In this document: positions 46,883-64,000 of the stretch, one piece after another | Layout of the letters: the number at the start of each line of letters is the position of its first letter | Numbering within the stretch: the stretch's first letter is position 1 | NCBI GenBank assembly: GCA_947172415.1 | Contig: OX359189.1 | Coordinates: 1,820,501 to 1,884,500, forward strand | Direction: 5' to 3' | Length of the DNA: 64,000 bases | DNA from: Chondrosia reniformis | Lineage: Eukaryota > Porifera > Demospongiae > Chondrillida > Chondrillidae | The notes under the pieces: generated by a model | What the model saw: the letters and a program-made list of their open reading frames with translations, nothing else | Told to the model about the DNA's origin: nothing | The model's database searches: none | Translations under genes and position numbers: made by a program

Positions 46883-47451
46883 TGCAATATATGTTGACTG
46901 TCTTCATTGGCTTTAATCTACTAAGTCTTCATTCATATACATATATAGGTGCAGGGATACTATAAGGACATGCTGCATATACTATAGGAGACTTCCTACA
47001 TAAGTACGAATATCAGATCAAGATATCACATAAATTTATAGAAACACAATTGTTATGTATATTTATTAATGTCATGATGTGAAATATATGAAAAGTGTAT
47101 ATAATCTGCATAATATACAGAAAATCACAACATGCGTGTAGTTATGACTTTATACTACATACGTATATAACTCCGAAATGTGTAATGGTCAATGCGTATA
47201 TACACTTCATATAGCATGCATGCAGAAGAAATGTGTAAGATCGATATTATATTATCTAAAACCTAAAGAGAATATATAGCCTCAGTACATTTGCAATTGG
47301 TTATTAAACACATCATTAATTTAAAATGTTATGCATGTTATATACACATTTATATATTTGGGATACACTCAATTTATTGCAATCGATTATAAACAATAAA
47401 ATATTAATAATAATAATAATTATTATTATTATTAGAGTATATATAGTACCT

Positions 47452-47684
47452 ATACCTGGCACATTTTTTGTGAATATAATTGACAATTATACTAGTTATA
47501 TAGCAACCAAAAATAGAATACAGCTGTTAATGTTTCTGCATGTTGCTGCATATATAAACAGTTACATGCGTAATGAGTTTATAATCTTCAAAACTGAATA
47601 GCAATTTCATCTTCAAGATCTTAAAAAGTTGCAAATAATTAACTCATGATCATCCATGAAAGAATCAAGCTGTTTCTCTATAAA
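47452..47684 (-). pseudogene. duplicated 3' end of the nidogen-domain gene
   Basis: Matches 50541-50775, the last codons and 3' flank of the nidogen-domain gene (ATCTTCAAAACTGAATAGCA, CATGAAAGAATCAAGC), with indels. Only the terminal coding segment is present, so it is non-functional. It lies in the same orientation as its source. Confidence 0.75.
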
Positions 47685-49340: not shown

Positions 49341-49736
49341 CCATAAACATTTTAAAATACTAAGAGTTCTGTATGCAAATCATGTGCTTATAGTTTTTTA
49401 TCACTTTCTGTACTTTCATCTGTCCTAGTAATTTCCATTTCACCTGTCTGTATGACACATTTACCTCATCTTCAGGTTAAGTGTATTGATCAGGTCATCT
49501 ATAGATCTCACTTTGACCTCTACTTGTATTAGTATAATTACACTCCAATTTTCCTATAAATAAGTGCCTTGATTTGTTGTAACCATTAATTCTTCTCCTT
49601 CTAAAAGATTCATTGTTGCCATTGGAGAAGAGTTTCCTATAAACTGTGTGATATTGCAAACTAGTCAGCTTACTGTCACAATTGTTGAATACAACACCAT
49701 CTTTTGGCGAGTTCAGTATCTACAAGCCTCATAATC

Positions 49737-50288
49737 ATGTTCAAAGTATTGTTATTGTTCAGTTTGGCTACTTTCATAGCCCAAGTTGGCAATGGAGCTC
49801 CTGTTGAACCAGATGATCGTGATCAATCATTTGTCATCAATTCTGAAGAAACAGATACAGCCATGGCCAATGATCTGATAGTCTTTGCAGACCCACGGAA
49901 TGAGGCTATTGCAGTGGAGTATTTTTCAGAGGATCTAATGCAACTAATAGATGAACTATTAGATGGCAATTATGGTGACCGTAACAAGCGCGGCAAAATT
50001 CTCAAGTACATATGTAAAAAAATTGTAAAGGAAATTGTGGAAGTCATTGTTGATGGAGTAAAAAAGATTGTGAAAATAATTTATGAAGAAATCTGTGAAT
50101 GGCTTTCTGGAAGTGGCGATGGAGAAGAGAGAACCAAAAGAAGCGAGAATCTCTTGAATGAACGTGTAATTACTTTTAGAAATCCTTTGAATGGAAAATC
50201 TTTCCAGTATTACTCTAACGAACTCTTCTTCACTCTGATAGACTTGGAACATAGGATTACCAACACCAATAACACTGTCACAGAATAA
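49737..50288 (+). CDS. secreted precursor of a two-cysteine amphipathic peptide
   Basis: Single exon, 183 residues. ATG 49737 was chosen because the frame upstream has only a non-ATG start and the signal peptide begins here (MFKVLLLFSLATFIAQVGNG). An acidic segment follows, then RNKR (residues 82-85), a 50-residue region, RTKR (132-135) and a 48-residue C-terminal segment. Both basic sites fit the furin pattern R-x-K/R-R. The central region starts GKILKYICKKIVKEIVEVIV, has a D-G turn and continues VKKIVKIIYEEICEWL. It is strongly amphipathic and holds the protein's only two Cys, placed symmetrically about the turn, which suggests a disulfide-closed helical hairpin. The two flanking segments resemble each other (VFADPRNE...YFSEDLMQLIDEL and TFRNPLNG...YYSNELFFTLIDL). 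Family not recognised. A membrane-active or signalling peptide is inference. Confidence 0.75.
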   Translation: MFKVLLLFSLATFIAQVGNGAPVEPDDRDQSFVINSEETDTAMANDLIVFADPRNEAIAVEYFSEDLMQLIDELLDGNYGDRNKRGKILKYICKKIVKEIVEVIVDGVKKIVKIIYEEICEWLSGSGDGEERTKRSENLLNERVITFRNPLNGKSFQYYSNELFFTLIDLEHRITNTNNTVTE

Positions 50289-50690
50289 AAGGCAGTGTGT
50301 ATGGACACTCTAACTGATCCCCACACCCACTATGTGTAATCATGCCATATATAATTACTGGTGCATGTATAAAGGACATGAACAAATCTATATACAGTTT
50401 TGTACGTATGTATTTGTCTTTATTTTACCACCAGTATATATTATGTAACTCATCTAACAACTATACAAATTTGAACTATATACAGATAAGATCATGATAT
50501 CCTGAGGTAACTGTGGTAACTATAATGGCCATGAATATCATTTATACCTGACACATTTTTGTGCGAATAATTGATAAGTATATAATATACGTACATGTTT
50601 AGCAACCAAAAATACAAAAGAGCTGTTAATATTTCTGCTACTGCATATATAAACAGTTACATGGGTAATGAGTCTGTATAGTTGTAATCT
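50289..50690. other. convergent 3' intergenic region
   Basis: Short gap between the stops of the peptide precursor and the nidogen-domain gene. 50541-50690 is the source of the duplicate at 47452-47600. No gene seen. Confidence 0.6.
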
Positions 50691-53468
50691 TCAAAACTGA
50701 ATAGCAATTTCATCTTCAAGATCTTTGAAAGTTGCAAATAACTCATCCATGAAAGAATCAAGCTGTTTCTCTTCCTCATTTGAGGCTTTTTCCATGGTAA
50801 CACCTTCCATCTTGGTCACATCATCTTCATCACCATTGCCTGGACATTCTTCATTGTGTTCCTCATCTTTAGATTCATTCTCTTTATCACCTTCGTCATT
50901 GTTTTCTTCACCAGAGCTTTCTTCATTTTCCATATTTTCGTCTTCTGAACTGTCTCTGATTTCTTCTGCATGTTCTTCTTCATTGGTAAGTAAGGCAGCT
51001 GTTTCTTGGGTACTAATATCATCTCCCTCAGGTGCGTCTTCTTTGAGATTATCAGAATTTTCCTTCATAGTTGCATCTTCATTGCCTTCATCCTTTAATT
51101 CCTCCTGCGGAATATCTTCTTCAACATGGCTTTCCTTCTCCTCTTCGTATGTTTCACTTCTATCACTTTCTTCTCCAGAATTTCCTTCAAATTCCACATT
51201 CTCATTGTCTGACTTATTAGCTCTGTAGCCATCTTCCTCCTCTTCTTCTTGGCAGGCAAGTAAGGCAGCTGCCTCATTGGTAATAATGATATCTCCTTCA
51301 GCTGTATCGTCTTTGGGGCTGTCAAAATTAGTCTCTGTCACTTCCTCTTCATCAATTTGTTTCATGTCGATTGGGTCTTCAACCACATCCAAAGTGTACT
51401 GATGCTGAACTACCAGATCATCAAGTGCTATTGATTGTCGCACTTCGTCCCACTGCTGTTGCACACTTTTAGCATCTTCTTCAATGTCTGCATTACTGTA
51501 AGTATCCAGCGGAGCTTGCCAAGCTTCTGGGTCCACCAAACTGCTCACATCTTTATTGTAGTTTAGTTTTTGTTGCCTTCTTCTTAAAACAATATAACAG
51601 CCAGCAAAACCAACAACTGCGTATAGAAACATAAATATTCATACCTTGAATAAAAATAATTTTCGATTCCATTACTATTTAATAAGACATATGTATACGT
51701 ATAACTACTTGTATAAGATGTATACATTTTACAGATTAATGTGCAATTAATTAGTAAATTATATATCACCATACATATTATTGCTTACCTGCAACTGTGA
51801 AAAGGATAATTCCTGCTGATAATCCAACGCCTAAGGACTAGAGTGGAAGTGTGGATAAATGATATTCAGGAGAGCAGGAAAATTACAAAATTAATAGTGA
51901 ATTTGCAATTTATGCAACGATACCCTACTTGGTACATATATTAGTCTAATCCAATGAATGTCAGTAATCTTTGATAAGAATACTTTCAGGGTATTACATA
52001 ATCACATCCACATATTACATCACCTAACATACCAGTCCCAAACTGGACGTTGGCGTGACTACATTAGAGTTTGGTTCGATTGCTGCATACAGAAACATTG
52101 TTGACGTGAAACAGATACAGCAGTCATTGTGTTTAATTCAGTAGGTCCATTTGCAAACTCTTTATTACCTTGCTTTTCTTGTATCATGAAAAACCATTGT
52201 CCCTCGACTCCAGTATTCCCCATAACTTTATCAATGCCTTCCATGGAATCAGTGAGTGAGCCATCTATTGTGTAAGAGTATTCTCCATCACCAGCATTGA
52301 TTCCAGCTAGGACGTTACCAGTTTCTGTTTTTGACCACTGGATTCTGTCCTTTGCATAGTTAAAGACCGCAACTGAGGTATTATAATTGGTGGCTATCAG
52401 GATTTGGAATGTGTTTTTCTATAATATGAAAAGAAGTTACTTGACATGTTTTATTATAATGAAAGATATCTCCCTAGTGCATATCAAGATTAAAATTCAA
52501 ATGATCATTTACCCATTAGGCTCCATAAGTTAATAGCTATATACAAACTGATTATGAAAAAATTTTTTTACATATACATACATACATAATAAAATGCAAT
52601 ATCATAATACATATACACTATTACCAGGTCAGTTCCATTGGGATAGTAGCCGACATCCACCCATGTAACAATCAGGGCCCAAGTGGCAGTGAGGTTTAGT
52701 AACTCATGGGCCAGTGGGTTGTCCTCATTGTACAGTTCAATTACAAAGTCCTCCAGAGAACTTGAATTATCCAGTATTCTGTAGTATACATTGCCACCTT
52801 TAAGCGTGTCTACATCAATGTCCCCCCAGAATGGTGCCACCATTGTCAGCCATCTATCAGAGCCATCTAAAGGTAGCTCATCAGGAGAGAACAAAGAATA
52901 GGTAAGGTTATCATTGTGAAAGGACACCAATCCGTTTATGTCAATCTAAATAGAAAGAAGAAGGTATAATAAGAGTAGTGGAGGGTGATTACATTAAGAT
53001 TAACTGGAGAATAAGAGGGATTGTCTAAGTTCATTTAGCTTAAATAAAAAGTGGGTAATTCTCTGTATTTAAAGGAAAATGAATTATACTGTACACACGT
53101 AGTTAACGACAAACTTAATTATATAAGCCATAATTCTAATTCTATGCAATTATGTGTAGAATTCCTAAGGTGCGGTTCTCACATAGGTATTGAAGCCTAA
53201 AGCATACGTAATCAACGCATAAAGTAAGTGACGTTACGAAAACGTTCTACGTGAAGGTTCAAGTACTTACACTGACGTATTCATAGGCGATACCGAATGC
53301 CGGAAACGGATTCGTAACTCTTAAATTTACTACTGTGTCGTCTTTCTGCGGCATTAAAGTATCACCATTTTCTGGTCCAAACGGATAGCCGAGAAACTCT
53401 TCGAAATGTACCGAAATGGCAAATCTTTGCAGGAGAAGCCATACAAGAATAGCAAAGTGGTACTTCAT
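50691..53468 (-). CDS. nidogen-domain (NIDO) type I membrane protein with acidic tail
   Basis: Six exons: 53468-53271, 52945-52625, 52418-52169, 52082-52033, 51837-51789 and 51616-50691, in phase, 597 residues. Signal peptide MKYHFAILVWLLLQRFAIS. A NIDO domain spans exons 1-3: INGLVSF, VAPFWGDIDVDT, GNVYYRIL, TWALIVTWVDVGYY, NTFQILIATNY and AGINAGDGEYSY follow the nidogen/alpha-tectorin/SNED1 pattern. A short stalk leads to a membrane segment across exons 5-6 (LSAGIILFTVAVVGFAGCYI, then LRRRQQK). The roughly 300-residue tail is dominated by Glu and Asp, with a repeated motif (AEGDIIITNEAAALLACQEE and PEGDDISTQETAALLTNEEE). It ends SFMDELFATFKDLEDEI. Most NIDO proteins are secreted matrix proteins, so a membrane form with a long acidic tail is unusual. 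Adhesion to matrix is inferred. The small intron 52168-52083 is needed to avoid a stop. Confidence 0.85.
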
Positions 53469-57434: not shown

Positions 57435-60400
57435 TTATAAAATGGCAGGCTGAATTATTGGAAATGCTGTTCCATGTTTCAAAAAGTACCTCTGCAACCT
57501 GTGTAAAAACAAACACATGAATAAATAACTTGACCACATCAGCTTAACAAGCCCTTTCCCATCAAAAGTGAAGGATTGAATATATAACTGTATTATCAAT
57601 ACAAATTACACTATCAGAATCGTTAGTCAAATTTAAAGTAACACAAAGTTTTCAGCTTACCTCTCTGTCTTGTTAACCTTTACAACATCAATTTCCCTTC
57701 TTTTCCTTCCAAGAAATGAAAGAGCATCATCCACAAGATCTCTGACGATGCCAAGTGGATTAAATATTGGCAAACGTAGGCCAATTTGTACAGGAGACTG
57801 GCGGAAGAAACTGATTCTAGCAGACACATCAATGTAGCCACTCTCAAAAGCTCCCAGACTAGCATCAAAGGTAATCTCTTGGAGGTCCACTATGCCATCA
57901 AGACCAGCTGTCAATACTGCAGATAACACTGCTAAACTTGCTCTGATGGCCTGTTTCAGAACCTCCAGGGCTGCCTTGGCGATGTCTACAAGAATACGAG
58001 CCTTATCCACTACAATTTGAGCTGCACTTAGAGCTATTTCTACTGTTTTAAGAGCTACTTCTGCTATTCCCAGGGCTATTTGAGCTACTATTAGGGCAAC
58101 CCTAAGAGCTGCCTGGATTATGGCACACAAAATATTCTTTAGTATACAGATCGGATCAGGAATTCTGAAGCAACAGCTGTCCCATTTGATGCATGGTAAG
58201 ACACACTTCCCCCAGACTTTAACTGCACATCCACATCCACATAAAAAGGGAATACAGACTAAAAAAAACAAAGAAAATGTGGACATGTATTTATCTTCCA
58301 TGAAAGTTCCAATCTTAAACTAAACAGAACTAATATAAAACAGGAATCCCAGAAATATAATATACATGTGTCTTACTTGATCGGCACCTTCGAATTTGAC
58401 AGACACTTGATATTTTATTTGCAAGGTCTGCAATTTCCCGCCTAAGTGACTGTACTTTTTCTCGGGCTGAGCGAACATGATCTTCAACTCTTCTAAAAGC
58501 CTCAACTGCACTGTCAAATACTGCCTGTGCTCTATCAATCTTAGCCTGTGCTTCATTAATAGCATTCTCTGCTGAATCAGATATTGCTTTAACACCATCT
58601 CGGATAGCATTAGCAATTTTTCGTAGAATTGTTATCTCTAAAGCACCGGAGGCTCTGAAGCTTGCATCCTGAAGACTTCCATAAGATGCATATACCATTA
58701 GACTAGCTTTAAGAACCCCAAAAATGTCCCCAGAAAGGGATACCTTGTATCTATTATTACTGATTTGCAGCATAGCTTCTACACTAATCCCAAGAACAGA
58801 CACATAGCCGGAGGCATTAACATTAACAACCTGTGGATTACTCTGAACCAGTGCATACAAAAATGGACCCTTGTTTCTAATACTTTTGGATTCTGTCATA
58901 GTCAAGAGCCCAGCGACATTAATGGGCGGAAGCCTGCCACTGACTTCTATTAATCTGGGAGGATCTATGGTAACCTCTGCCTCAATTTCAAAACCAATGA
59001 TGTTAATTGTTCCCTTGAAATAAAATCCGGATGGAATTGTTAGGGAAAGTGCTGGAATAAACTTTTGCAGCGGAGAATAAGAGACTATTACACCATCTGG
59101 AAATCCAGTATCACCAAGGAAGGATGGAAGAGTAACACCAATACAGAATAGATTTAAAACTCTTTGAATGGTCAAGGAACTGAATTCAGCAAAGAAGAAA
59201 TTGTCGCTGGGTCTATTTGGATCCAATCCAATAACTGCTGTGGCTTCTAAGACATCACAAGTTCCAATGCGGATCATACCTCCGAAAGCTAATCCTGGCA
59301 GGGGAACACCCGGTGAGATTGCCACATTTATGAACATATTACAAAGATCAACAGGAAGTCCAAAAGCTCCTTCCCAGCAGCCACTCATTGCTAGCTCAAG
59401 TGCCAGAGAGAACATTGGTAACTTAACTCTCACTCCTCCAATTAAGGTGACAGGGCCAACATCAGCCTCAGCTGCAATGGCAAGGGAAAACTCTTCTCTA
59501 GTGAACAGCATATCTAAATAGGCACTTTTTAAGGTAAGAGGACCGATTTGAAAATCTTTGACATTAGCCATGACAGTAGTGACTCCGCTATCTAAAAATC
59601 TTACTAAAAGATCAAAGTTGGCATCAGCCCCGAGCAACTCTCTGGCCAAGCTACAAAATATGTCACTTTGGCAACCGGAAGGCCATGTAGATCTGGCAAA
59701 GAGTATAATTCCTTTCTCCAATTCTCCTGTGATTTCACTAAGAACAGCACCCTTCAAAGGTATTTGGTCATAAGACTTTGGAACTAAAACAAAAGCAATA
59801 TCAAGTTCTTGGTTAAGCAAAGCAATGCGTTTAGCCAGGCTTCCAATAATTGGTTTGAATAGGTTTGCCAACAGAAAGTTTTCAACTTCAGCTCCTACTA
59901 TCCAATCCTTCTCATTGTCAACGCATGCACTAATACCAGCTCTTAGAGTAGAGGAATGAAGGACATCACCAGAAACACAAATACCCTCAGGATCTATGCT
60001 CAATTCTGGAAAATATATCACCAAGTCTGGAATGCCAACTTTCTCCAAAGAAGATACGCTTATAAGTCCAGAAGACAATGCATCTGCCAATTCAAATAAG
60101 CTCAAGCGCATGCCATTTGCCAAAACACTGTATCCACCACTAGCAAAGTCCACTTCTATCATGAAAAGGATCCCATCTATCATCAAGCTTCCTTTCACAT
60201 AGAGTCTATGCAACTGTAATAGGTTTGAAAACTTCAGTGACACTACAACTATTTCAGCTTCAATATCAATGGCATCGGAAAACAGATTAAAATCAAGTTT
60301 TAGTGGGGCTTCTATCTCAATAATTCTATTATCCAGATCCAACATCAACTTTGTAATGGATATATCCAAGATATCACCAAGTATATCAACAGATGGCAGT

Positions 60401-63400
60401 GAAAAATCATGGCTTAAAGCATTGATCATGCTCCCTATATCAAGATTCCCAATGGCATCAAAATCCATAAAACCAGCTTCATCAAATGCCAAGAGGAAAT
60501 CGTTTGAAAGAAGCTCAATGATAAAACCCAAGCGAGCCTGGATATTGTTCAAATGAAGGGCAGAGACTGGTATTTTTAGAGCTGAGAGAGTACCCACATC
60601 TATATTAAAGGATGAAGTTGAATAGGCAAGTTGGAGTTTAGGAAGAGATAGATCACCAAAAAAGGGAATATCCCTTATGTCAATGTCTAGGATATTATCT
60701 AAAATATCTGCCAATGAAAATTCTAAATCAGTATCCAGTGTATTGCAGCCAGTAAGTATGGCTAATTCTGGTGGAGCACGGTCTGCATCATTAATAGACT
60801 GATAGAATATCACACACACCCGATCAGAAAACCAATCACCCAGCTGTAACATACCACTGATTGCCAAATGTATTACATAGGTATCCGTATCATACGTACC
60901 CAATAGTGACAAGTCAGTAAGTGATAGGACAGTGTCTAACGAGCCGCTAGGTATAGAAACACCAGTAAGAGTGGACACAAAGTTGACAAGGTCAAGACGA
61001 TAGTTCTCTGGAGATGTGGCTCTAATCGACCATATTGAATCACTAAAGTCAACTGATACAAGGAAATGAGTGCCATCCTCACCACCCAGAAATAAGGATC
61101 CAGACATGGTTAAGTTGGTTATCATAGGAGAAGAGAGTAAATCTGAAATGCTCAGGTATAGCTTAATATTGTCTATTTCGAGGAAATTGGGAAAGAACAC
61201 CATTCGACTATCTGTTTCCTCTGTTTCTATAACAAAGTCACCAGTCTGGCAATTGTAGCAAATTTCTTTTAAATTAGTACTGATGGGCAACCTGAGGCCA
61301 TTTCCTTCATCTCCAAGAATTGCAAGAGCCAAATCTGAAGAAGAAATCTTTTGAGTTTCTTCAAAAGCTGAACATGTAAGAGTGCTATTCTCAGTGCCAG
61401 TCGCACTCCTGGTATAGCCCAGACTTGTAAGCTCAGAGAAGAGTTCTAGCATACAGTCGCAAAGGTTTGCCCTACAGTCCTGCAAAGCCTCCCGTATGGT
61501 AGAAAAGAATTCCAAATTGGCTGGTTCCAGTGTAATATCTCCAATTTCAAATTCTAAAAAATGTATATAGATAAATATAAGCCAAATTTACGTGTTAGAC
61601 TAGTCTACATATGTATGCAGGGCTGCATGCAGAACTTGGGGTGGGGGGCGCAAAATAAATTTTCCATTATTTAGGGGGGGCAATGGTAAGAGGGTGATGA
61701 AGTAGTTTATGGGAGTCCCAAAAGTCTAGTCTCAAAAGTCCATGCACCCCTGCCTCCCCACTATGTGGCCCTGGTATGTATAAGATTGATATAATTCTGA
61801 TAACTCACTCATGCAACCTTCTCCATCTAATGTCACAACATATCCTTGTGGACAACTGCATCCATATCCTCCTGGTGTGTTACTGCAGATTTGAGTTTCA
61901 CTGCAGTGGTGAATACCTAGACTGCACTCATTAATATCTGTAAAAAAAGGGGTGTTAATTGATAATACATTGAATAGGATGGCCTGTTTTTCGCCCATCC
62001 CTACTTAGAGAGTATGGAAGTACTCTCTGATATACATATATATGTCACATTGTTAATGGTTACTGTATGTACTGTATGTATACCTGAACCTACCAATGCA
62101 ATTCATCATATCATTGAGCTCAAATCCACTGCGACAAGTACACACAAATGATCCTTCAGTGTTGGCACAGTCTTGACCAAAGTCACAAGGCAGGACAGCT
62201 AGGGAGCACTCATCAATATCTGCAAGGTAATGTGTATACACTGTAATGATGTCTTTTTCAGATATGTATTCCTCAAGTTTAAATTCGAATTGAATTTGAA
62301 AACATGAGTAAGACATTTGTAATTTGGGCTTGAAAAATTAGGTGTCAATTCCTCTTTAAAGCTTAGGTTGCAGACCACCCTTATAGAAGGCCACGCCCTA
62401 GTTGCACTCAGGCAATGAATATAATTTGTGGTTAGGGTGACATTCATCACATTTACCTTCACAACTGATACTGTCATGGGCAAGCAGATAGCCTGTATTG
62501 CAGACACACTGAAATGTTCCGGGTAAGTTTTCACAATCATGTTCACAAATAGCTTCACCATTGTCACATTCATCAATATCTACAAATAACAAATATATAC
62601 AAGAAACAATAAATGAATGCATTGACTACAATAAACATTACAATAAACATCTAAAATTCACCAATACAATTTCTTCCATTATTAATATCCTCAAATCCAT
62701 CAAGACAACTGCAGTTATATGAGCCCTGAGTGTTGGTACATATAGCATTAGTGTGGCAGTCATCCGTTTCCAGTGCACATTCATCAATGTCTACAGTAGT
62801 AAAGCAAATCTGCATGCATAACAAATCAACACATTCACATTCGTGTAGCTTATTTTGTACAATATTGCTCATTAACAAACATGCGTACATACCAAGGGTT
62901 CTTTCAGGGGGGGAGGGGCATTTGCCTACCCCCTTGAAAAATTTGTGACAAATGTTATGGAGTATGTATGTACAATGTACATGAAACACTTTCTGTTCCA
63001 TAAAAAGCTACTCATAAACCTTTTGCAATACCTCTGAAAATCAATCTTGGAAGGACTACAAAACCCATATTATCTAGATGACTATATATGTGCCAGAATG
63101 AACATTGGTGCAATAAATATGTCCCCCCCTTCATTTCTATTATCATCATTTCCCCTCCTCCCCCTCCCCCTTCGTAAATACTCTGAAAGAAACACACATA
63201 CCTACACATGACCTTCTGTCCCTGTCCAACTCAAGTCCGTTTGGACAAAGGCATATGTAATCACCAACAGTATTGAAGCATGTATGACTGCATTCATTAG
63301 TACCCACTTCACATTCATCAATGTCTGCATGAAGGAGATAAATGGTATTAATGAAAGCTGTCGATATAACTGATAAAAAAATTATTATTTTATGGGATCA

Positions 63401-64000
63401 ACATAACAGTCATAATGATAACAGTTTAGTTTTTCAAATATATCCAGCAGAGGAGAAGGAGCTAATTATTATCAGAAGTAAGTACTCTCTCATCCCAAAA
63501 GACACGCATGTATATAGATGCAAAATGAGTATAAACTTACCATTACATATGACCATGTCGTTGCCAAGGGCATATCCATTAAAACAATCACAATGAAAAC
63601 TTCCAATTTCATTAATGCACCGTTGTTGACAGCCACCTCTGTTATCCTCGCATTCAACAACATCTACACACATTATGGAAATCGTATTTGTCAAACTGGT
63701 TAATTTATAAACAGTTTCATCTTCACGTACCGATACAGGAGAGTCCATTAGAGCTAAGGTAATATCCAATGTTACAGGTACAGTAGAAGGACCCATAATT
63801 ATTGAAACAGTTCTGATCACATCCTCCATTGTTAGTTAGACACTCATTAATATCTAAATTAATAGAAGGCATTAGAATAGTATAACTAGTGTGCTCAATG
63901 GTGTACTTTTGCAGAGATGCATGCGTAACTCTGTGTCTAACAGAATTACAATTAGACTAAATTTATATAGCAATGTAATACATACCATCACAATTGTGTC
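57435..64000 (-). CDS. large multi-EGF secreted protein with unassigned C-terminal region (5' partial)
   Basis: The start lies beyond the window. Exons from the right: part of one at 64000-63986, then one EGF-like domain per exon at 63853-63731, 63663-63541, 63324-63202, 62790-62662, 62579-62457, 62219-62094 and 61937-61809, each phase 1-1. Most begin D-I-D/N-E-C, the calcium-binding EGF signature. A single 3,177-bp exon (61553-58377) encodes about 1,059 residues of alternating hydrophobic strands and Leu-rich segments with few Cys, ending in a heptad-like helix ([20 protein letters not shown]). Exon 58258-57661 has a Cys-rich start ([17 protein letters not shown]), then a long Ala/Ile/Val/Leu helix, and ends near GRKRREID, a basic cleavage-like site. 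The last exon is 57498-57435. The central region matches no family I know. An extracellular matrix or surface role is inferred from the EGF domains. Confidence 0.82.
61946..62036. repeat. dispersed repeat copy in EGF-gene intron
   Basis: GGTGTTAATTGATAATACAT ... CTCTCTGATATA, the same family as 23280-23356. It begins 9 bp upstream of the EGF exon at 61937, on the intron side. Confidence 0.55.

What the first reader, a model, noticed from the sequence alone, without database searches (positions are those of the whole stretch)
49737..50288. Unrecognised peptide precursor: symmetric two-Cys helical hairpin between furin-type sites
The region between RNKR and RTKR is Lys/Ile/Val-rich and amphipathic, with a central D-G turn. 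Its two cysteines lie at positions 8 and 35, each 13.5 residues from the turn centre, so one disulfide could close a helix-turn-helix. KKIVK occurs in both halves, hinting at an internal duplication. The protein has a signal peptide and no other Cys. It does not match a family I know.
Basis: partly seen in the sequence, partly recalled or inferred. Interest (0 to 1): 0.75.

Follow-up and report, generated by a model that had tools for sequence, protein, structure and literature searches.

The report
Sponge precursor of two-cysteine helical peptide
A sponge gene with no detected relatives encodes a secreted precursor from which a 46-residue, two-cysteine helical peptide could be cut, and that peptide weakly resembles one half of a saposin, a lipid-handling protein fold.

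Summary
An uninterrupted 183-codon frame (49737-50288, +) encodes a signal peptide, an acidic pro-region, RNKR, a Lys/Ile/Val-rich peptide with the protein's only two Cys (peptide 8 and 35), RTKR and a C-terminal pro-region. It scores as coding. No relative was found in its own genome, which fits the sponge Chondrosia reniformis. New lead: the peptide's best PDB sequence match is the first half of saposin A, weak (best E 0.033-0.04) but absent in four controls. In saposins those two Cys bond to the other half, so I propose that two copies pair antiparallel (8-35', 35-8') into a saposin-like, lipid-active unit hinged at D-G. A closed hairpin is the main rival. Curated saposin models do not match, no orthologue could be examined, and function is inference.

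The parts
49737..50288 (+). uninterrupted reading frame, 183 aa plus stop
   Evidence: coding score; one copy found in the genome
49737..49796 (+). signal peptide, residues 1-20 (cleavage G20/A21 by the -3,-1 rule, recalled; no predictor run)
   Evidence: sequence
49797..49979 (+). acidic N-terminal pro-region, residues 21-81, net charge -15
49980..49991 (+). RNKR, furin-type site (residues 82-85)
49992..50129 (+). predicted mature peptide, residues 86-131 (46 aa, net -1; helical core of 39 aa, net +2)
50013..50015 (+). Cys93 = peptide Cys8; aligned with a saposin-A Cys (ICK)
50016..50030 (+). KKIVK, first copy of the 15-residue repeat
50052..50057 (+). Asp-Gly, residues 106-107: proposed hinge (reader: turn)
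50061..50075 (+). KKIVK, second copy of the 15-residue repeat
50094..50096 (+). Cys120 = peptide Cys35; aligned with a saposin-A Cys (CEW)
50130..50141 (+). RTKR, furin-type site (residues 132-135); preceded by Glu, so no amidation signal
50142..50285 (+). C-terminal pro-region, residues 136-183, one N-glycosylation sequon at 178
49555..49562 (+). TATAAATA, possible promoter element (weak)

Best explanation
This is a real sponge gene, single exon as far as the DNA shows, for a secreted precursor. Signal peptidase removes residues 1-20; a furin-like convertase cuts after RNKR and RTKR; basic residues are trimmed; a 46-residue peptide with two Cys is released (inferred from motifs). The peptide is a long amphipathic helix with a weak point at D-G. 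It works like half of a saposin: two copies pair antiparallel and are locked by two bonds between chains, Cys8-Cys35' and Cys35-Cys8'. Those correspond to the bonds that in a saposin join the halves (C2-C5, C3-C4). The pair can lie open, with two straight helices, or jackknife at the two D-G points into a four-helix bundle, and so bind or disturb lipid membranes, as a defence or lipid-handling peptide. The acidic pro-region may keep it inactive until cleavage. Shown: the reading frame, motifs, helix prediction and the weak saposin match. Inferred: cleavage, pairing, bonds and function.
For: Best PDB sequence matches of the peptide are saposin A / prosaposin: 5 of 7 hits, E 0.04-0.2 with the 39-aa core and 5 of 7, E 0.033-0.42, with the 46-aa peptide, aligning Cys8 and Cys35 (CEW) with saposin Cys and D-G with the loop before the second helix. 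0 of 4 control peptides hit a saposin at E up to 10 (reversed; three Cys-fixed shuffles). A local profile of 8 saposin first halves gives 11.0 bits; 0 of 1000 class-preserving and 4 of 1000 Cys-fixed shuffles reach this, nor does any of the 400 other six-frame tiles of the 264-kb region with two Cys 26-29 apart (next best 5.0). Saposin bonds: SP-B 8-77, 11-71, 35-46 (PMC6139377 passages); saposin hinges are the alpha1/alpha2 and alpha3/alpha4 joints (PMC4154668 passages). Helix predicted as continuous. In the antiparallel register set by the Cys all 5 charged contacts are opposite; 809 of 20,000 charge shuffles do as well. A straight doubly linked dimer is feasible at 96 degrees per residue, close to the peptide's own periodicity of 94. 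A helical two-Cys peptide formed antiparallel dimers exclusively (PMC11275974 passages).
Against: Pfam SapB_1 does not match, and the locus is not among the genome's 17 SapB_1 matches at E up to 10 (only 20 candidates scored). With Cys and Trp fixed, 61 of 1000 shuffles reach the profile score; true saposin halves score 36-63 bits leave-one-out. The second-half profile gives no signal: 255 of 1000 class-preserving shuffles reach it. The five PDB hits are near-identical proteins, so one match; its best single stretch has E 16. The whole precursor found no saposin. Both Cys lie off the centre of the hydrophobic face, about 50 and 100 degrees. A straight dimer at 98.2 or 100 degrees per residue gave no feasible pose. 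Charges along a lone helix are badly spaced: 19,418 of 20,000 charge shuffles are at least as good. Net charge -1 is unlike a classical antimicrobial peptide. No expression, orthologue or mass data.
Confidence: 0.3

Rival explanations
1. One reading: one chain folds at D-G into two antiparallel helices closed by an intramolecular Cys8-Cys35 bond, a small membrane-active or channel-acting peptide like Super Mini-B or the ectatomin subunits (ectatomin structure recalled).
For: Cys are equidistant from D-G; at the Cys-set register 5 of 5 charge contacts are opposite; 8-35 is one of 3 of the 15 register pairs that need the least turning of the hydrophobic faces; Super Mini-B, 41 residues, folds as a helix hairpin (PMC6139377 passages).
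Against: AlphaFold2, single sequence, gives one continuous helix, block-mean pLDDT 98 and 97 on either side of D-G; hydrophobic phase nearly continuous across D-G at 94-96 degrees per residue; the disulfide needs 45-82 degrees deviation of helix 2 in the best poses.
Confidence: 0.27
2. A single long helix that assembles non-covalently or by mixed disulfides as a right-handed coiled coil with a 15-residue repeat, in the manner of the VASP tetramerisation domain (that structure recalled).
For: 15-residue repeat, 8 of 12 identical; moment peak at 94 degrees, 0 of 5000 shuffles reach it; the 3-4-4-4 core is the most hydrophobic of five patterns tried, 18 of 5000 shuffles reach it.
Against: That core includes Gly22; the hendecad (48 of 5000) and all-4 (57 of 5000) patterns fit almost as well. 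The VASP_tetra model finds nothing in this genome at E up to 10 (a true Ena/VASP gene, if present, was missed too, so the test is weak). Does not explain the Cys placement or the secretion.
Confidence: 0.15
3. A peptide hormone or signal acting on a receptor; the helix is the receptor-binding form.
For: Neuropeptide-style precursor with flanking convertase sites; sponges have phoenixin and nesfatin precursors (PMC9004410 passages) and convertases (PMC6850559 passages).
Against: One copy of the peptide per precursor, no amidation signal, no conserved relative found (other sponges not searched); strongly hydrophobic face.
Confidence: 0.15
4. A chance or young orphan frame with no processed peptide; the sites are never cut.
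For: No relative in any collection searched.
Against: Coding score; ordered precursor layout; 4 of 20,000 shuffles give two sites with both Cys between them.
Confidence: 0.1

Closest known systems
Saposin B-type domain (saposin A, SP-B; Pfam SapB_1 + SapB_2)
   Same: Amphipathic helices; two Cys 27 apart against 28 between C2 and C3 in the 8 first halves compared and 24 in SP-B; CEW at the second Cys in both; a loop (D-G against KDN) between the helices; release from a secreted precursor (saposin precursor recalled).
   Different: Only two of six Cys, only one half, no curated-model match, no second-half signal; 11 bits against 36-63 for true first halves.
Delta-myrtoxin-Mp1a (ant venom heterodimer)
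   Same: Proposed architecture only: antiparallel chains linked by two disulfides (PMC7400207 passages).
   Different: Two different chains; shorter (recalled); no sequence relation tested; a venom peptide.
Super Mini-B (designed from SP-B)
   Same: 41-residue helix hairpin held by disulfides, surface active (PMC6139377 passages): the model for the hairpin rival.
   Different: Designed; two disulfides; four Cys.
VASP tetramerisation domain
   Same: 15-residue helical repeat, right-handed coiled coil (search listing only; detail recalled).
   Different: Intracellular (recalled); the Pfam model finds nothing in this genome.
Sponge antimicrobial peptide ASABF of Suberites domuncula
   Same: Gene-encoded sponge defence peptide (PMC12466427 passages).
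   Different: Cysteine-stabilised alpha-beta fold, 64 residues.

Membership tests
Saposin-like proteins (SapB) | Match to curated Pfam SapB_1 / SapB_2 models | tested here: not met
   No Pfam hit; the locus is not among the listed genome matches to PF05184 (17) or PF03489 (11)
Saposin-like proteins (SapB) | Six Cys in three bonds (granulysin is the exception named in PMC4154668) | tested here: not met
   Two Cys in the whole precursor
Saposin-like proteins (SapB) | First-half helix-loop-helix pattern with C2...C3 spacing | tested here: inconclusive
   11.0 bits; 0/1000 class-preserving, 4/1000 Cys-fixed, 61/1000 Cys+Trp-fixed shuffles reach it
Saposin-like proteins (SapB) | Second half, C4...C5 | tested here: not met
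   3.4 bits; 255/1000 class-preserving shuffles reach it
Saposin-like proteins (SapB) | Lipid binding or membrane perturbation | not testable with these tools
   needs the peptide
Convertase-processed secreted peptide precursors | Signal peptide plus dibasic or furin sites flanking the peptide | tested here: met
   signal peptide judged by eye
Convertase-processed secreted peptide precursors | Convertase in the same genome | tested here: met
   S8 matches and a P domain side by side on C4
Convertase-processed secreted peptide precursors | Cleaved peptide detected | not testable with these tools
   needs mass spectrometry
Helical hairpin with one disulfide (ectatomin-like, by function) | Two helices with a break between them | tested here: inconclusive
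   AlphaFold2: one helix, single sequence only
VASP tetramerisation domain | Match to PF08776 | tested here: not met
   no match in the genome at E up to 10

The most novel reading that the evidence does not exclude
A self-complementary half-saposin: one short gene product that builds a saposin-like four-helix unit by pairing two identical copies through the C2-C5 and C3-C4 type bonds. It would be either a relic or a re-invention of the single half from which the two-half saposin fold could have arisen.
Probability: 0.15. Interest if true: 0.75.

Novelty: new variant of a known kind. Interest (0 to 1): 0.45.

Why it matters
Few gene-encoded peptides of sponges are known: a 2025 review names ASABF as one of the few well-characterised sponge antimicrobial peptides (PMC12466427 passages), and phoenixin and nesfatin were reported in 2022 as the first sponge neuropeptides (PMC9004410 passages). 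This gene gives an exact, easily synthesised candidate. If two copies really close into a saposin-like unit, the question of how a two-half fold could come from one half becomes a bench experiment on one 46-residue peptide.

Tried and rejected
NCBIfam TraC (E 0.0041, 15.1 bits against a cut-off of 567; residues 58-160): rejected as composition, it spans both cleavage sites. C8:4320474 match to the C-terminal region (E 1.67): the frame there looks like an ABC transporter by eye, chance. Beta-hairpin with a D-G turn: rejected, moment at 160-180 degrees 0.00-0.19. Classical cationic antimicrobial peptide: weakened, net charge -1 for residues 86-131, +2 for the 39-aa core. Heptad coiled coil: rejected (3908 of 5000 shuffles do as well). 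Bacterial, archaeal, phage or viral origin: no relative (the last two find close relatives only). Paralogues: none found by protein or DNA search of the genome (only the best candidates are scored there). In 264 kb around the gene, tblastn gave nothing better than E 0.74 apart from the gene itself, and a crude filter (hydrophobic start plus a basic site) listed nine other frames, none similar by eye. Foldseek against PDB with the helix: 0 matches. Two EF-hand-like and two sphingomyelinase-like frames came up in the SapB_1 genome search (by eye): not relatives of this gene. Genome neighbourhood: frames scanned against Pfam gave no link to a function.

Full report
Where it is. The window lies in a genome of 117,379,552 bases in 15 contigs, at C1:1,820,501-1,884,500; C1 is 10,409,357 bases. 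This fits the published assembly of the sponge Chondrosia reniformis: 117.37 Mb, 14 chromosomes plus a mitochondrial genome, longest 10.41 Mb (PMC12181767, abstract in the listing and passages). Lengths differ slightly from one figure legend (117,390,217 and 10,413,042), so the identity is very likely, not proven.

The gene. The frame 49737-50288 is open for 183 codons from its ATG, with TAA. Chance of such a frame is small (1.8e-6 for 183 open codons; 0.005 expected frames of at least 199 codons in the window). Codon use scores 0.142 bits per codon; the other five frames are negative; 0 of 1000 unmasked stretches reach it; 4 of 27 long ORFs of the region score higher. A TATAAATA lies 182 bases upstream of the ATG, and the only AATAAA in 49401-50900 overlaps the stop codon, so transcription signals are weak evidence. 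No transcript was seen.

The precursor. Residues 1-20 look like a signal peptide (by eye). Residues 21-81 are acidic (net -15). RNKR and RTKR bracket residues 86-131; the residue before RTKR is Glu, so no amidation. The protein has two Cys only. Two such sites with both Cys between them occur in 4 of 20,000 shuffles. The genome has a convertase-like layout, subtilisin-family matches followed by a P domain, at C4:126,984-128,802 (some of these matches cross stops, as six-frame matches across introns can). A furin, a PC7 and four novel convertases are described in the demosponge Amphimedon (PMC6850559, passages).

Relatives. None found: own genome by whole protein, three parts and DNA (one weak chance match); phages; bacterial, archaeal and viral contigs (close relatives only); Pfam; NCBIfam apart from one rejected match. 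No other sponge is held, so absence of orthologues is not shown.

Shape. AlphaFold2 on residues 86-135, single sequence: helix 3-38, mean pLDDT 86, block means 92/98/97/90/55. The full-length model is poor (mean 45). The hydrophobic moment of residues 3-38 peaks at 94 degrees (0 of 5000 shuffles reach it); the two halves differ in phase by -23, -4 and 14 degrees at 94, 95 and 96, but by 88 degrees at 100. With 36 residues the peak is only known to a few degrees (my estimate). The internal repeat (KKIVKEIVEVIV / KKIVKIIYEEIC, 15 apart, 8 of 12 identical) beats shuffles (12 of 20,000; 120 of 20,000 class-preserving). Its length is four helix turns at 96 degrees, so it may reflect helix packing as much as history. 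The Cys do not map on each other in this repeat. Against a stable lone helix: its charges are badly spaced, 19,418 of 20,000 charge shuffles are at least as good.

Bonding geometry. In the register where Cys8 meets Cys35 in an antiparallel pair, 5 of 5 charged contacts are opposite; 809 of 20,000 charge shuffles do as well; the neighbouring registers 41 and 42 have net scores of 6 of 8 and 7 of 9. Both Cys lie off the centre of the hydrophobic face, about 50 and 100 degrees. In idealised helices a hairpin disulfide is feasible with helix 2 turned 45-82 degrees from face-to-face in the best poses; 8-35 ties with 12-31 and 16-27 as the best of 15 register pairs. A straight homodimer with both bonds is feasible at 96 degrees per residue (hydrophobic face 28-44 degrees off the partner), gave no pose at 98.2 or 100, and is feasible only with 78 degrees or more deviation at 102.86. 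These are crude models.

Saposin lead. phmmer of the 39-aa core against the PDB: 7 hits, the top 5 saposin A or prosaposin, E 0.04-0.2; with the 46-aa peptide 7 hits, top 5 saposin, 0.033-0.42; with the whole precursor no saposin. These five are near-identical proteins, so they count as one match; the per-stretch E-value of the first is 16. Reversed core: no saposin. Three Cys-fixed shuffles: no saposin. A profile of six sponge and two PDB first halves scores the core 11.0 bits, the reversed core 1.3. Shuffles reaching 11.0: 0, 4 and 61 of 1000 (class-preserving; Cys fixed; Cys and Trp fixed) and 1 of 1000 free; true halves left out in turn score 36-63. Of 401 six-frame tiles of the region with two Cys 26-29 apart one is the core itself and the next best scores 5.0. 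Within the precursor the best tile that does not overlap residues 86-124 scores 1.1. Second-half profile: no signal. So the match rests on Cys spacing, the Trp after Cys35 and the amphipathic pattern; it is a lead, not membership.

Why a dimer. In saposins C2 and C3 lie in the first half and bond to C5 and C4 of the second (SP-B 11-71 and 35-46; PMC6139377, passages). With Cys8 as C2 and Cys35 as C3, two copies would make the same two bonds, 8-35' and 35-8'. [quoted passage not shown] The D-G aligns with the first of these joints. A helical two-Cys peptide made antiparallel dimers exclusively in vitro (PMC11275974, passages), and Mp1a is a natural antiparallel doubly linked pair, more potent than alternative forms (PMC7400207, passages). 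Saposin-like folds are known among other secreted peptides of marine animals (Mu8.1, con-ikot-ikot; PMC10437998, passages). I found no report of a half-saposin homodimer in two searches of the held open library: one search listed 12 of 15 papers, in none of which 'half-saposin' occurred; one search found none. Subscription papers were not searched.

Verdict. Observation confirmed. The hairpin is one of two live options and not the one the prediction favours. The peptide is an orphan, as far as could be searched, with a weak saposin-half signature. Interest is moderate because no orthologue, transcript or peptide could be examined.

Noticed in passing
window 57657-61515 (-): Two long frames (214 and 1061 aa, the first helix-rich and secreted-looking) seem to have tandem copies just outside the window at window-equivalent 66219-70164, about 8.56 kb away. 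The 214-aa copies are near-identical by eye; the long ones were matched by length and place only. No Pfam family above cut-off.
   Followed up: partly
window 50691-51632 (-): Tail-to-tail neighbour: 313-aa frame with a hydrophobic start and an extremely Glu/Asp-rich tail; no family above cut-off.
   Followed up: partly
window 47451-47578 and 50543-50673: About 80% identical copies of a repeat, one upstream and one just downstream of the gene.
   Followed up: no
window 52568-52930 (-): NIDO (nidogen-like) domain, E 2.5e-13; EGF-like domains at 63434-63829 (-).
   Followed up: no
genome C6:5,997,512-6,019,417: Array of saposin half-domain matches on one strand, a prosaposin-like gene or cluster.
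   Followed up: partly
L041 (C10:7.35 Mb) and L042 (C10:5.85 Mb): Two saposin-bearing frames, each followed by a CGxPYDPW stretch in another frame, resembling acid sphingomyelinase by eye.
   Followed up: no
genome C10:2,081,500-2,114,857: Five subtilisin-family matches within 34 kb; none of the genome's four P-domain matches lies there.
   Followed up: no
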